Origin: Tridacna crocea | Lineage: Eukaryota; Mollusca; Bivalvia; Cardiida; Cardiidae | NCBI GenBank assembly: GCA_943736015.1 | Contig: OX031071.1 | Span: forward strand, 31,218,619-31,282,618 | Direction: 5' to 3' | Length of the DNA stretch: 64,000 nt | In this document: in pieces, positions 9,474 to 32,050 of the stretch | How positions within the stretch are numbered: the stretch's first letter is position 1 | Layout: each line of letters opens with the position of its first letter | Notes under the pieces: model-generated | Told to the model about the DNA's origin: nothing | The model's database searches: none | What the model saw: only the letters and a program-made list of their open reading frames with translations | Translations under genes and position numbers: made by a program

Positions 9474-11225
9474 ATGGAAGTGTCAGGACGAAATCAGACA
9501 GGGAGTGACGACACAACAACAGGTGTTCAATGTGATCCTTGTTTATTATTGAACAAAAATATAAATGCTAAACATTATTGTGTGGAGTGTGACGAATATT
9601 TCTGTGACAATTGTTCTTCTGCTCATAAACTGTTTAAAGTATCAAGAAATCACAAGTTATTATCCAGGGATAAGATACCTTCACAGAAACTTACTTCAGC
9701 ACAGCAAAATGTCTGTTCTAAACACAAAGGGAAACATTTGGAGTACTTTTGTAAGATTCATAAGAACTTTTACTGCACAGTTTGTATAACTCTGGAGCAC
9801 AAGAATTGTACCATTGAATATATAGATGATATTGCACAAGACTTTGAGACAAGTCCAGAGTATACAACTTTAACAGAGAAATTATCAAGTCTTCTACAGC
9901 TGTTAAAAGATATAAAGAAAACTTCCACAAGACACAGTCAAGACTTACAAACAGTGCACACCCAGTTTGTATCAAGTGTGAAATCCTTTCGTACAGAAAT
10001 CAACAACCTTCTAGATTCCATGGAAACAACCATTTTGAAGGAAGCCCAGGATGTGAAGGAGTTGGATACAAAATCTGCTCAAACTGTGTCTACAACGTGT
10101 GATACAATGACCACAGACATCAATGAAATTGTCTCTAACTTAGACAAACATAAACAATACAAACAACAGCGACAGTTGGTGATTTCTGCAAAGAAAGCTG
10201 AAACCCTGATTTCTGACATAGAAAATAAAATGGCTGACATATCCAGTCAAAACAAAATTAGAAATTATAAATTTCACAGAAATGAGGAAATCCTGCATTT
10301 ACTCCAATCTATGTGCAATCTTGGTACATTAGTGGATAGAGAGAAGGAGGGAGGAAAAACAGAAATGGAGAGAAAGGAGAAAGAAAAGGTAAAGCTTGTC
10401 AACAAAGATCCCAAATCTGTCAGAGCCAGTTATATAGGACAAATCAATGTTAAACATTCAAAAGATAAATATAACTGTTGGATTACAGGCAGTGTAATGA
10501 TAGATCCATACAGAATAGTTCTAACAGATTATGACAACAACAGTGTAAAACTTGTAAATGTTGACAGTAACAGTATTCTATCTGATCTAAAACTTTACAC
10601 AGAACCATGGGATGTTACTTGTATTGATAAAAGTCAGCTTGTCATTACATGTAACAATAAATTAGTTTTTGTAAATGTTGGACAGACTTTGACTGTAAAC
10701 AAACAACTTCAAGTTAATGGAGACTGTAGAGGAATTATTTTTAATGATAATCAATTATTTGTGTCATTTGTTACACCAGAACCTGCTGTTAAATTAATCA
10801 GTCTACATGGAGAAATATTGAAAACATTTTCTACAGACCAAAATGGACAACCTCTGTTTAAACGTCCCTGGTATATTTGTCTTAGTAATTCCAAGTCTAC
10901 ACTATTTGTTAGTGACTGTGGGACAAACACTGTGACAAGTGTGGATTTACTGGGTAAAGTTCAAAATGTTTACAGAGATACTAACCTGAAGTGTCCATAT
11001 GGTCTGACTGTAGATAGATATGATAATATTTATATAGCTGGACGTCACTCACACAACATACACCAGATATCTACACAGTGTAGACCCATACAAATATTAC
11101 TGGATCAAACACAAGGAATGGAAGTTCCACAGTCAGTGACATATTGTGAAACAGAAAACAAACTTTATATCAGCCATTTTAGTATATCTAAAGGAAATGT
11201 TTTGTCAGTTTATCAACTACAGTAG
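9474..11225 (+). CDS. RING-less TRIM-like protein: two B-boxes, coiled coil, NHL-like beta-propeller
   Basis: A 583-residue protein is encoded in one exon. B-box 1 ligands are C20, C23, C36, C39, C44, C47, H51 and H60. B-box 2 ligands are C81, H84, C93, H96, C101, C104 and H109, with C112 where a His is usual. Residues about 130-280 are heptad-like and Q/K/E-rich, a likely coiled coil for dimerisation. A charged linker (about 288-308) leads to about 315-583, with repeats such as PYGLTVDRYDNIYIAG and STLFVSDCGTNTVTSVD typical of NHL-like propeller blades. There is no N-terminal RING, because only 19 residues precede B-box 1. Direct ubiquitin-ligase activity is therefore doubtful. Bivalves have very many such genes, often linked to innate immunity, but this gene's role is unknown. 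The start fits well (A at -3, G at +4) and no earlier in-frame ATG is available in this exon. Confidence 0.92.
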   Translation: MEVSGRNQTGSDDTTTGVQCDPCLLLNKNINAKHYCVECDEYFCDNCSSAHKLFKVSRNHKLLSRDKIPSQKLTSAQQNVCSKHKGKHLEYFCKIHKNFYCTVCITLEHKNCTIEYIDDIAQDFETSPEYTTLTEKLSSLLQLLKDIKKTSTRHSQDLQTVHTQFVSSVKSFRTEINNLLDSMETTILKEAQDVKELDTKSAQTVSTTCDTMTTDINEIVSNLDKHKQYKQQRQLVISAKKAETLISDIENKMADISSQNKIRNYKFHRNEEILHLLQSMCNLGTLVDREKEGGKTEMERKEKEKVKLVNKDPKSVRASYIGQINVKHSKDKYNCWITGSVMIDPYRIVLTDYDNNSVKLVNVDSNSILSDLKLYTEPWDVTCIDKSQLVITCNNKLVFVNVGQTLTVNKQLQVNGDCRGIIFNDNQLFVSFVTPEPAVKLISLHGEILKTFSTDQNGQPLFKRPWYICLSNSKSTLFVSDCGTNTVTSVDLLGKVQNVYRDTNLKCPYGLTVDRYDNIYIAGRHSHNIHQISTQCRPIQILLDQTQGMEVPQSVTYCETENKLYISHFSISKGNVLSVYQLQ

Positions 11226-20810: not shown

Positions 20811-21275
20811 CATACGTTCAAGTGTCCGTAACAAAGAAACAAATGAATAAATTCATGGCAGAAATAAGGGACCGGCGGGATTCGAATTCCAGAACTCCTG
20901 GACAAGCGGCCAAAGCCATAACCACTGAGCCAAAGAGATATCTCCCTGACGCAATAGTCAGGTATTGGATTTAAATTGGGACGAAGCTATGCAGGAAGGA
21001 GTGGTCTCCCGTAACACACCCCCTCTTATTTATTGATGATTCAAAGCCTTATTAGAGAGGACATATGATTTTGGACAACGAATGGGATTAAGGGCTCAAT
21101 GGCCAATCACGGACGAGCCGCTATCCTACGAACAACGTCCGTAACAAAGAAACAAATAAATGCATAGCTCAAATACCAACCGCATCTGGAGGGATTCTAA
21201 ACCGTGCGGACAAGATCCTCGTTTTTCGAGGATTAATGTACCAATACTATAACCACTGAGCCAAAGAGATACTAG
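20811..21275 (-). mobile_element. tRNA-bearing TRIM, second copy (5' LTR truncated)
   Basis: On the minus strand the truncated 5' LTR (about 21275-21124) is followed by a worn primer-binding site, TAGCGGCTCGTCCGTGAT (21123-21106). A non-coding interior of about 90 bp, the purine tract AAGAGGGGGTG (about 21026-21017) and a complete 3' LTR (21016-20811, TGTTACGGGAG...) follow. The tRNA-like segment sits in each LTR. It is more diverged than the copy at 23951. Confidence 0.72.
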
Positions 21276-22454
21276 TAATACTAGTATCTCTCTTCTTTTT
21301 TTTCCATTTGTAATTTTAATTTTTCTTACTCAATATTACTTTTAAAGTCTGTCTGAGACACAAGAATAAGAGACAGAGCAGACGAGTCAAGTATTTCTTT
21401 ATCAACTAAAAACTGAACAACATTGTACTTTTAATCGCAGTCAGTTTATGATGAGAAGCAAGATCTAATGCTACTCTCTCACTATTGCGTATTAGCGGCG
21501 TATTTCTTTCTGAGACACAAGAATAAGAAACAGAGCAATCGAGTCAAGTATTTCTTCATCAACTAAAAACTGAACAACAGAGTTCTTAAACTCATGCTTT
21601 AAAGGTGGCCCTTCAGATTTTGGGACGACAATTTTACAAAAATGGAAAAAAATCACCCTTATACTCTCATAGCCTTTTAATTTGCATTCGTAAAACTCCA
21701 GTAATCGAAAAGCTTCCGATAACACGAGAAATTAGAGATTTATTACGGACCAGGTTGACAGCAACGGGAGACACGTTCTATTTTTAGATTATCAATTTTC
21801 TCATTTAAATACAGGAAAACATACAAAGCTTCAAACATCCGTCCGAAGAAGACATTATGGAAAATAATTATTACATGTTTGTTATATAATGGAATTTAAG
21901 CGTTAGTAGTCATGTGCCAGTCACTTGATATTCCCACAATGCTTTATTGATTTTTGGTGCAAAATCTAAATATAGCTTAAGAGGCTACGTAGCCTTTTAA
22001 GGAAATACCATCAAAACAATTTTTTTATGTAATTTTATGATTCTTAATTATTGATGATTTTATTGTTTTTTCATATAAATTTCAATAATATATATATTTT
22101 TTAATTTGGTGTGATGTGAAAATTCTAAATACCCACCTTTAACATAGTACTTTTAATCGCAGTCAGTTTATAATGAGAAGCAAGATCTAATAATTCAGAC
22201 CTTTTTGACAAATATATCAATCCTTGTGATTGCTCAGCAATAATTTTTTCAAGATCAAAAGACGCGATTGCTTTCTGCTGGTTCAGTAGAATAAAATTCA
22301 AATTTAAATTCTAATTTTATTATTATTCTAACCCTAACCCTTATATATATTTGTTATCTAATAAAATTCAATACTGTGACAAGTTCAAAATAATTTCAAG
22401 TATACTAGTATCCAAAAGTACTAGATGATCAATCCCGAAAGAGCCCCCAATTTC
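21276..22454. other. Gene-free stretch with a local duplication
   Basis: A block (GAGACACAAGAATAAGAGAC...AACTGAACAAC) at 21353-21422 recurs at 21512-21580. The phrase TTTTAATCGCAGTCAGTTTA recurs at 21430 and 22151. Two telomere-like TAACCC units occur at 22331. No gene is seen. Confidence 0.45.
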
Positions 22455-22662
22455 TGTTACGAGAAAAAGTCCGTAACAAAGAAACAAATGAATAAATGCA
22501 TGGTAGAAATTAAGGGAGCCAGAGGGATTTGAACCCCAGAACTCCCGGACTAGAGGCCAATACCTTAACTACTGAGCTAAAGAGATATCTCCCTGATACA
22601 GTAGTCAAGTGTGTATTTAAATTGGGAGGAAGACATGCAGGAAGGAGTAGTCTCCCGTAACA
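22455..22662 (-). mobile_element. Solo LTR of the tRNA-bearing TRIM
   Basis: This single 208-bp LTR has intact inverted ends (minus strand TGTTACGGGAG...CTCGTAACA). It shows that the true LTR end is CGTAACA, drifted to CGTAAGA in the full copy. The A-box and B-box of the tRNA-like part are recognisable. It sits directly at the truncated left edge of a tandem-core element. Confidence 0.72.
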
Positions 22663-23950: not shown

Positions 23951-24156
23951 TGTTACGGGAGACCACTCCTTCCTGCATGGCATACTCCCGATTTAAATAC
24001 AATACCTGGCTAGTGCGTCAGGGAGATATCTCTTTGGCTCAGTGGTTAGGGTATTGGCTTTGCGTCCGGGAGTTCGGAGTTCGAATCCCGCTCCGATCCT
24101 TATTTCTGCCATGCATTTATTCATTTGTTTCTTTGTTACGGACTTCGTTCGTAAGA
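23951..24156 (+). repeat. 5' LTR of the tRNA-bearing TRIM
   Basis: It runs TGTTACGGGAG...TTCGTAAGA. The tRNA-like segment spans about 24025-24098. A second GTTACGGA motif lies near the 3' end. Confidence 0.82.
24025..24098 (+). promoter_or_regulatory. tRNA-like pol III promoter inside the 5' LTR
   Basis: A-box TGGCTCAGTGG (24044-24054) matches the consensus TRGYNNARNNG. B-box AGTTCGAATCC (24078-24088) matches RGTTCRANNCC. Their spacing of about 35 bp is right for pol III. Whether it is transcribed is unknown. Confidence 0.7.
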
Positions 24157-24174
24157 TGGGGGCTCGTCCGGGAT
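24157..24174 (+). promoter_or_regulatory. Primer-binding site, tRNA-Pro type
   Basis: TGGGGGCTCGTCCGGGAT lies immediately after the 5' LTR and matches the known tRNA-Pro primer site at all 18 positions. Confidence 0.85.
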
Positions 24175-24238
24175 TGGCCATTGAACCATTAATCCCATTT
24201 GTTGTCCAAAATCGGACTTCCTGCCTAATAAGGCTTTG

Positions 24239-24259
24239 AGTCATCAATAAATGATGACT
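24239..24259 (+). other. Small perfect hairpin in the TRIM interior
   Basis: AGTCATC / GATGACT arms (7 bp) enclose AATAAAT, just upstream of the polypurine tract. A role in RNA packaging or stability is only a guess. Confidence 0.45.
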
Positions 24260-24272
24260 TTAAGAGGGGGTG
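24260..24272 (+). promoter_or_regulatory. Polypurine tract
   Basis: TTAAGAGGGGGTG lies directly upstream of the 3' LTR's TGTTACGG. Confidence 0.75.
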
Positions 24273-24478
24273 TGTTACGGGAGACCACTCCTTCCTGCAT
24301 GGCATACTCCCAATTTAAATACAATACCTGGCTACTGCGTCAGGGAGATATCTCTTTGGCTCAGTGGTTAGGGTATTGGCTTTGCGTCCGGGAGTTCGGA
24401 GTTCGAATCCCGCTCCGATCCTTATTTCTGCCATGCATTTATTCATTTGTTTCTTTGTTACGGACTTCGTTCGTAAGA
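24273..24478 (+). repeat. 3' LTR of the tRNA-bearing TRIM
   Basis: It differs from the 5' LTR by G-to-A in CCCGATTT/CCCAATTT and G-to-C in CTAGTGCG/CTACTGCG. An A-rich stretch follows. Confidence 0.82.
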
Positions 24479-24540: not shown

Positions 24541-24605
24541 CCATTAAAAAAGAGCAAATGCTGGTTACCAGCGTTTTCTCCTTTCTCCTTAATGTTTTCT
24601 ACCCT
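24541..24605 (+). mobile_element. HE1 palindrome fragment
   Basis: It holds the core turn GCTGGTTACCAGC and the right arm only. The left end is replaced by A-rich sequence. Confidence 0.55.
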
Positions 24606-24626
24606 AAGAACTTCCAAAATGCAGAG

Positions 24627-24928
24627 TAACTGATTACCACATAATCCCTGCTTTTGACGACCCTGAAAAAGAAGCCTTTAAAAAACATTGTGGGAAAAGG
24701 AGGAAATAACCAGCATTTCCTCCTTTTCCTACAATGTTTTCTACCCTTCACTAAATAAATTTCAAATTTTCACTCACTTTTATTTCGTCGTCTCCAAATG
24801 CTTTTGATTTTGACAAGCCTAAAATATTGTCGTTTGGTAACGAGTTCAGTATAACTTTCAATTTGTCATCTGCAAATGTTTTCAGTGTGAGCAAGGCTAA
24901 GATTTTGTCGTTGAGTAAACAGTTAATT
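24627..24928 (+). mobile_element. HE1 copy followed by an extra HE1 right end
   Basis: 24627-24848 is a full-length copy with a shortened turn (GAGGAAATAACCAGCATTTCCTC). 24849-24928 repeats the right-hand segment (CAATTTGTCATCTGCAAATG...CAGTTAA), as if another copy lost its left part. Confidence 0.7.
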
Positions 24929-31310: not shown

Positions 31311-32050
31311 ATGACCCATCAATCCTCGGAAAAAAATGGCCAAGCCAGGACTCAACCCAACACCCTGTTATCAAATCCTGCACGCTACCAACTGAGCTAC
31401 TGGCGCTCAGCTAAGTTTGTAATGGAGAATCCGGGGGGGGGGGTATCAATTTTAATAGATGTAATAATTTTACATTTGGTACATAAAATGACTAATTGCT
31501 CATAACAACAACTTGTCACCGAAAAAAAGCAATCGCCGAAAAGAAAATGGCCGAGCCAGGAATCAACCCAAACCCCCTGTTCACAAATCCTGCACCCTAC
31601 CAACTGAGTTACTGGTGCTCAGCTAAGTTTGTAATGGAGAATCTCGCCGCAAATAAAATGGCCGAGCCAGGAATCAACCCAAACCCCCTGTTCACAAATC
31701 CTGCACGCTACCAATAGAGCTACTGGTGCTGAGCTAAGTTTGTAATGGAGAATCTCGCCGCAAAGAAAATGGCCGAGCCAGTAATCAACCTAAACCCCAT
31801 GTTCACAAATCCTGCACGCTACCAACTGAGCTACTGGTGCTTAGCTAAGTTATTAATGACTCATTAATCGCCGCAAAGAAAATGGCCGAGCCAGTAATCA
31901 GCCCAAACCTCCTGTTCTCAAATCCTGCACGCTACCAACTGAGCTACTGGTGCTCAGCTAAGTTTGTAATGGAGGATCTCGTTTCTTTTTATCAATTTTA
32001 ATAGATCTAAGGATGTTCCACTTGGTAAATAAAATGACTAATTGCTCATA
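31311..32050 (-). mobile_element. tRNA-derived SINE with tandemly multiplied head
   Basis: On the minus strand each head has an A-box (TAGCTCAGTTGG) and B-box (GGGTTGATTCCTGGC). One head at about 31333-31415 is followed by a tail (TATCAATTTTAATAGATGTA..., to about 31510). Four more heads start at 31544, 31655, 31767 and 31879, giving a 111-112-bp unit. The last ends with a second copy of the same tail (about 31990-32055). A G-run occurs at 31432-31443. These are SINE-derived units, not tRNA genes: the acceptor stems do not close. Confidence 0.7.

What the first reader, a model, noticed from the sequence alone, without database searches (positions are those of the whole stretch)
23951..24478. 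Young TRIM with tRNA-type pol III promoter inside each LTR and a perfect tRNA-Pro primer site
Seen: 206-bp LTRs with two differences, an 18/18 match to the proline PBS, a purine tract, a 116-bp interior, and A-box and B-box at normal spacing inside the LTR. Known: ordinary LTRs use pol II, while SINE heads use tRNA promoters. Inference: the LTR may have captured a SINE or tRNA, giving a hybrid between TRIM and SINE that could make RNA from pol III. Near-identical LTRs suggest recent activity.
Basis: partly seen in the sequence, partly recalled or inferred. Interest (0 to 1): 0.92.

Follow-up and report, generated by a model that had tools for sequence, protein, structure and literature searches.

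The report
tRNA-promoter mini-retrotransposon (Helenus type)
This is a recently active, very small retrotransposon with a tRNA-like promoter in its end repeats, a kind described in 2024; its genome also holds fold-back by-products that seem to record where its RNA starts and which larger element helps it move.

Summary
The host genome (1.05 Gb, probably a bivalve) holds a dispersed young family: 36 of 43 listed matches are 95-100% identical over the full length. Of 22 single copies read closely, 21 have target duplications of 4 bp or more; 6 of 26 measured LTR pairs are identical. The tRNA-like part belongs to the LTR. This is Helenus (Kojima 2024, PMC10886601), so the kind is known.

Not in what I read of it: (1) a fold-back junction at LTR 77|78 occurs at 44 places (a control palindrome: 0). 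In 16 of 27 loci read, two R-U5 copies lie head to head, the shape of joined strong-stop DNAs; 8 of 10 bare pairs have 4-bp duplications. They put the RNA 5' end near LTR 73-78, 7-12 nt before the A box. (2) One locus runs 21 nt past the primer site into tRNA-Pro. (3) Two recombinant loci join the TRIM at its primer site to a Gypsy-like element with the same primer site, the likely helper.

Pol III transcription is inferred, not shown; a TATA-like site fits pol II as well.

The parts
23951..24156 (+). 5' LTR of copy A (206 bp, TG...GA ends)
24273..24478 (+). 3' LTR of copy A (2 differences from the 5' LTR)
24157..24174 (+). primer binding site, 18/18 to tRNA-Pro
24157..24272 (+). 116-bp interior; no ORF of 150 aa or more
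24262..24272 (+). polypurine tract AAGAGGGGGTG
   Evidence: same in copy B
24035..24045 (+). A box in the 5' LTR (LTR 85-95)
24078..24088 (+). B box in the 5' LTR (LTR 128-138)
24357..24367 (+). A box in the 3' LTR
24400..24410 (+). B box in the 3' LTR
24023..24032 (+). palindrome GAGATATCTC (LTR 73-82); fold-back centre, inferred RNA 5' end
23992..23999 (+). TATA-like TTTAAATA (LTR 42-49)
24111..24143 (+). LTR 161-193, T-rich without TTTT; second least variable of 174 windows of 33 nt
22457..22662 (-). copy C: LTR of the TRIM type (84-85% to copy A) with a Gypsy-type end (CTCGTAACA), then spacer and primer site to about 22430
22130..22290 (-). degraded start of a Gag like that of the helper, downstream of copy C
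   Evidence: likeness seen by eye; weak DNA match, 65-70%; no Pfam or protein-database hit
20824..21271 (-). copy B: truncated 5' LTR from LTR 77 on, interior, 3' LTR

Best explanation
Copy A is a young member of a Helenus-type TRIM family. Shown: LTR-PBS-PPT-LTR anatomy, dispersal with 4-bp target duplications, near-identical LTRs, and two loci in which the TRIM's R-U5 and primer site run straight into a Gypsy-like element that has the same tRNA-Pro primer site. Inferred: RNA starts in the 5' LTR near position 73-78, just before the A box, most likely by pol III through the A and B boxes; with hardly any T4 stop in young copies the polymerase runs through the interior and the 3' LTR into the flank. 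The RNA enters the helper's particles, is primed by tRNA-Pro, reverse transcribed and inserted by the helper's integrase. By-products are inserted too: strong-stop DNAs joined head to head at the palindrome at the RNA 5' end, and a cDNA in which the enzyme ran on into the primer tRNA.
For: Dispersal: 36 of 43 listed matches at 95-100% over 528 bp. Target duplications of 4 bp or more: 21 of 22 single copies and 7 of 7 distinct tandem arrays among L001-L030. Identical LTR pairs: 6 of 26 measured. Helper: L045, L050, L052, L055 share the primer site; the one frame scanned at length (L045, 435 aa) has a SCAN domain above Pfam's cut-off and a zinc knuckle below it. L069 and L072 run from TRIM R-U5-PBS into 1.38 kb (to the end of the DNA held) of that element at 91-95%. 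RNA 5' end: 44 fold-back places, reversed control 0, control palindrome 0; in 16 of 27 loci read both arms are 129-130 nt and end at the U5 terminus. Primer: L051 carries 39 nt identical to the tRNA-Pro primer of PMC12217144, 21 beyond the PBS. Pol III side: boxes at tRNA spacing, 29 of 30 copies without TTTT, no AATAAA or ATTAAA in the LTR of copy A; helper LTRs hold 13-16 TTTT and no box match.
Against: The inferred start is also 31-36 nt after the first base of TTTAAATA, so pol II fits. In 42 LTRs the A box is not unusually conserved (50 of 196 windows as good or better) nor is the B box (130 of 196). Avoidance of TTTT is not significant by substitution test (2 seen, 4.14 expected, P = 0.20); array L023 and copy C hold TTTT. 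No transcript data. The control palindrome has 8 nt, the real one 10. Without a clean 4-bp duplication: L004, L037, L040, L041, L051, bare pairs L068 and L084. In 7 of 27 fold-back loci one or both arms could not be delimited, and 17 of 44 places were not read. No reverse transcriptase or integrase of the helper was looked at.
Confidence: 0.8

Rival explanations
1. Same TRIM, but transcribed by pol II from the TATA-like site; the tRNA-like part is a passenger or has another role.
For: TTTAAATA at LTR 42-49 begins 31 nt before LTR 73; box conservation within the family is not exceptional.
Against: No AATAAA or ATTAAA in the LTR of copy A, while 3 of 4 helper LTRs have AATAAA; A and B boxes at spacing 44 remain in copies B3 and C, 12-16% diverged, though B3's B box has 2 mismatches; few T4 stops in young copies.
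Confidence: 0.3
2. A tRNA-derived SINE moved by a LINE that happens to lie in direct repeats.
For: A-rich stretch directly after copy A.
Against: The other 29 loci of L001-L030 show no A tail at this place; the short duplications, PBS and PPT are those of an LTR element.
Confidence: 0.02
3. The fold-back loci are inversions or hairpin repair products in DNA, not strong-stop DNA.
For: The centre is the longest palindrome of the LTR, 10 nt; 7 of 27 loci are not clean.
Against: Both arms stop at the U5 end in 16 of 27, 8 of 10 bare pairs have 4-bp duplications, arms differ by 0-8 bases as if often from two RNAs, and L058 has the tRNA-Pro 3' end where an arm starts.
Confidence: 0.15
4. The element is biv-TRIM of bivalves rather than Helenus.
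For: TDR length 202-218 bp in biv-TRIM (PMC6934838).
Against: biv-TRIM has a 77-80 bp interior, no clear PBS, PPT GGGGAGA in most and a conserved 14-mer; that 14-mer is absent from the window at up to 2 mismatches.
Confidence: 0.03

Closest known systems
Helenus (Kojima 2024, PMC10886601)
   Same: TRIM with tRNA-like sequence in the LTR, PBS, PPT, 4-bp duplications in animals, tRNA-Pro among bivalve primers, Gypsy helper inferred there too
   Different: TG...GA ends here; fold-backs, primer read-through and helper recombinants are not in the sections I read. The published consensus sequences are in a supplement I could not read, so no sequence comparison was made.
Cassandra (5S rRNA TRIM of plants)
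   Same: Small-RNA promoter in the LTR; tandem arrays (PMC7215508 passages)
   Different: 5S, not tRNA; plants; pol III terminators conserved there, T4 mostly absent here
biv-TRIM (PMC6934838)
   Same: Bivalve TRIM of like LTR length, with arrays
   Different: Shorter interior, no clear PBS, no tRNA-like part of the TDR reported in the parts read
Bivalve Gypsy with tRNA-Pro PBS (Gypsy-13_CGi, named in PMC10886601)
   Same: Primer type of the helper found here
   Different: Not compared by sequence

Membership tests
TRIM | Two short LTRs, short non-coding interior, PBS and PPT | tested here: met
Helenus | tRNA-like sequence with A and B box inside the LTR across the family | tested here: met
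Helenus | 4-bp target duplication in animals | tested here: met
   21 of 22 single copies (4 bp or more) and 7 of 7 arrays among L001-L030; 8 of 11 of L031-L041
Helenus | tRNA primer and Gypsy helper | tested here: met
   PBS-Pro; L069 and L072. The helper is placed in Gypsy by Gag features and recall; its polymerase was not read.
Helenus | Sequence relation to a published Helenus family | not testable with these tools
   consensus sequences lie in a supplement that cannot be read here
TRIMp3 | Transcription by pol III | not testable with these tools
   no RNA data; sequence signs only
Cassandra | 5S rRNA-derived LTR part | tested here: not met
   no 5S match listed in Rfam scans
SINE | Tail and LINE-type insertion, no LTR machinery | tested here: not met
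biv-TRIM | 77-80 bp interior with conserved 14-mer | tested here: not met

The most novel reading that the evidence does not exclude
A palindrome at the RNA 5' end lets strong-stop DNAs, often from two co-packaged RNAs, join head to head, and the helper's integrase inserts these 258-bp inverted pairs as a class of mobile derivative of their own: genomic fossils from which the RNA start of a tRNA-promoter TRIM can be read. The joins between primer tRNA and the LTR's own tRNA-like part (L051, L058) suggest that tRNA sequences may enter LTRs by template switching from the primer rather than by SINE insertion.
Probability: 0.5. Interest if true: 0.78.

Novelty: new member of a known kind. Interest (0 to 1): 0.55.

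Why it matters
It gives a young, high-identity Helenus family with a helper candidate in the same genome, so that movement of tRNA-promoter TRIMs in trans becomes testable. If the fold-backs are what they seem, they locate the RNA start from DNA alone and show that incomplete reverse transcripts integrate in numbers. Joins with the primer tRNA offer an alternative to SINE capture for the origin of tRNA-like LTRs.

Tried and rejected
Nested SINE or local duplication: rejected. tRNA gene: no ARAGORN hit in the window, no Rfam tRNA match in copy A; in copy C the only tRNA match listed is tRNA-Sec at 16.6 bits against a gathering score of 47. Selection against TTTT: suggestive, not significant; 1.9% of 528-bp pieces of the rest of the window also lack TTTT. 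Box conservation as proof of promoter use: not exceptional. Copy B's 5' boundary at LTR 77 as an RNA 5' end: another palindromic stretch lies at the junction, so I do not use it. Gag-like peptides near copy C: no Pfam or database hit. Helper Gag: first 198-216 aa of two loci gave only weak hits below cut-off; the longer L045 frame gave SCAN; that SCAN is at home in Gypsy-type Gag is recalled. Viral contigs: 3 patterns, 0 hits. Host: a B-box protein gene gives best named hits in Mya arenaria at 29-32% and unnamed ones up to 69%, so probably a bivalve, perhaps a heterodont; not settled.

Papers: PMC10886601: abstract, methods, results, discussion, tables and legends and passages; PMC6934838: abstract, first part of results and passages; PMC5356446, PMC7215508, PMC12859917, PMC12217144, PMC4587795: passages only; others in search listings only. 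That the fold-backs are unreported rests on the sections read and on the listings only.

Full report
What is there. The window holds, at 23951-24478, two 206-bp direct repeats with two differences around a 116-bp interior. The interior starts with 18 bases that match the tRNA-Pro primer site and ends in a purine tract. Each LTR has an A box at 85 and a B box 43 nt on; such pairs are rare by chance. Two older copies on the minus strand, B and C, carry the tRNA-like part at the same place.

Genome. The window lies in a genome of 1.05 Gb. The search listed 43 matches (658 first-look candidates, 40 scored): 36 are 95-100% identical over all 528 bases and 7 are 85-89%; some overlap within one array. 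Loci came with the best 30; I fetched the others. Among L001-L030, 22 loci are single elements, of which 21 have a target duplication of 4 bp or more (copy A's own, AAAA, is uninformative; L004 has none). The other 8 loci are 7 distinct tandem arrays, each bracketed by a 4-bp duplication. Of L031-L041, 8 of 11 have one; of eight further loci tested, seven do and L051 does not. LTR pairs were measured in 26 of 30 loci; 6 are identical. All 30 end TG...GA. In 42 LTRs, one per locus, the stretch between the boxes is among the most variable parts and LTR 161-193 ranks 2nd of 174 windows for constancy.

Stops. Copy A has no TTTT, and 29 of 30 of L001-L030 have none. Four thymidines suffice for pol III in humans (passage of PMC5356446). 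Young segments with TTTT are 3 of 123, old ones 11 of 26, but the substitution test gives P = 0.20, and 1.9% of like-sized pieces of the rest of the window lack TTTT as well. The LTR has no AATAAA or ATTAAA; the only AATAAA of copy A is in the interior at 24246.

Helper. A pattern of the primer site that shuts out the commonest TRIM interior gave 76 hits, control 0. I read 20: 16 have a TRIM-type LTR before the site, and four (L045, L050, L052, L055) a different LTR of 493-561 bp, TGTTATG...CTCGTAACA, and a 5-base spacer. Downstream of it a Gag-like frame starts, broken in L052; in L045 it stays open for 435 aa to the end of the DNA held, with a SCAN domain (42.5 bits, cut-off 27) and a sub-threshold zinc knuckle. 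I call it Gypsy-like from this and from recall; its polymerase was not read. Its LTRs hold 13-16 TTTT and no A or B box match. Copy C in the window has a TRIM-type LTR with this element's end, spacer and primer region (33 bp, 94%). L069 and L072 run from TRIM R-U5 and primer site into 1.38 kb of it at 91-95%, to the end of the DNA held, as expected if both were copied in one particle. L078 also carries its sequence, rearranged.

Fold-backs. L058 is a 413-bp element with AAAG on both sides: LTR 1-140, the tRNA-Pro 3' end, then R-U5 in antisense and, around the palindrome GAGATATCTC, an identical sense copy of 130 nt. The junction CCAAAGAGATATCTCTTTGG occurs at 44 places, reversed control 0; the fold-back expected at the LTR's other palindrome of 8 nt or more occurs at none. 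I read 27 of the 44 (L073 is L058 again; L071 and L072 lie 3 kb apart). Both arms could be delimited in 20, and in 16 both are 129-130 nt, from the palindrome to the U5 end. Ten are bare pairs; 8 have 4-bp duplications (7 of these with 129-130-nt arms), 2 do not. L066 and L088, with an added interior and LTR, have them too. Arms differ by 0 to 8 bases in the 16. Minus-strand strong-stop DNA runs from the primer site to the RNA 5' end, so this is what two such DNAs joined at their ends would leave. The RNA start would be at LTR 73-78, 7-12 nt before the A box. The same place is 31-36 nt after the first base of TTTAAATA, so pol II is not excluded.

Primer. L051 continues from the primer site to give 39 nt identical to a published tRNA-Pro primer, 21 beyond the site, then switches to the antisense of the LTR's tRNA-like part; it lacks a 4-bp duplication. 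L058 joins the primer site directly to the antisense of the B box, where both read GGGATT. A pattern for such joins found these two places only. They support tRNA-Pro as primer and show that primer and LTR sequences can be joined. The host's own tRNA-Pro genes were not read.

Known. Kojima (PMC10886601) named tRNA-bearing TRIMs Helenus, in fungi, animals and one plant, with 4-bp duplications and Gypsy-like primer sites in animals, and proposed pol III use and SINE insertion without experiment. The present family meets every feature I could test. Its table lists bivalves of Pteriomorphia only; the host here is probably a bivalve, perhaps a heterodont, which would widen the range, but this is not settled.

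Judgement. What adds interest is the record of its life cycle in the genome: helper, primer, likely RNA start and inserted by-products.

Noticed in passing
window 31340-31981, minus strand: Tandem array of about four 111-bp units with tRNA-like A/B-box pairs, and one more pair beside it.
   Followed up: no
window 9474-11225, plus strand: 583-aa open frame, a B-box protein gene with relatives in bivalves.
   Followed up: partly
window 24547-24900 and many other places: Abundant dispersed repeat with an inverted core; it also lies downstream of copy B.
   Followed up: no
L003, L005, L010, L018, L023, L024/L028, L029, L034, L038: Tandem LTR-interior arrays bracketed by single 4-bp target duplications.
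   Followed up: partly
L059 and window copy B: An older LTR subfamily with a CCTCGAAAAACGAGG hairpin in the tRNA-like part.
   Followed up: no
L001-L030; L045, L050, L052, L055: LTR end GA in the TRIM where the helper has CA.
   Followed up: partly
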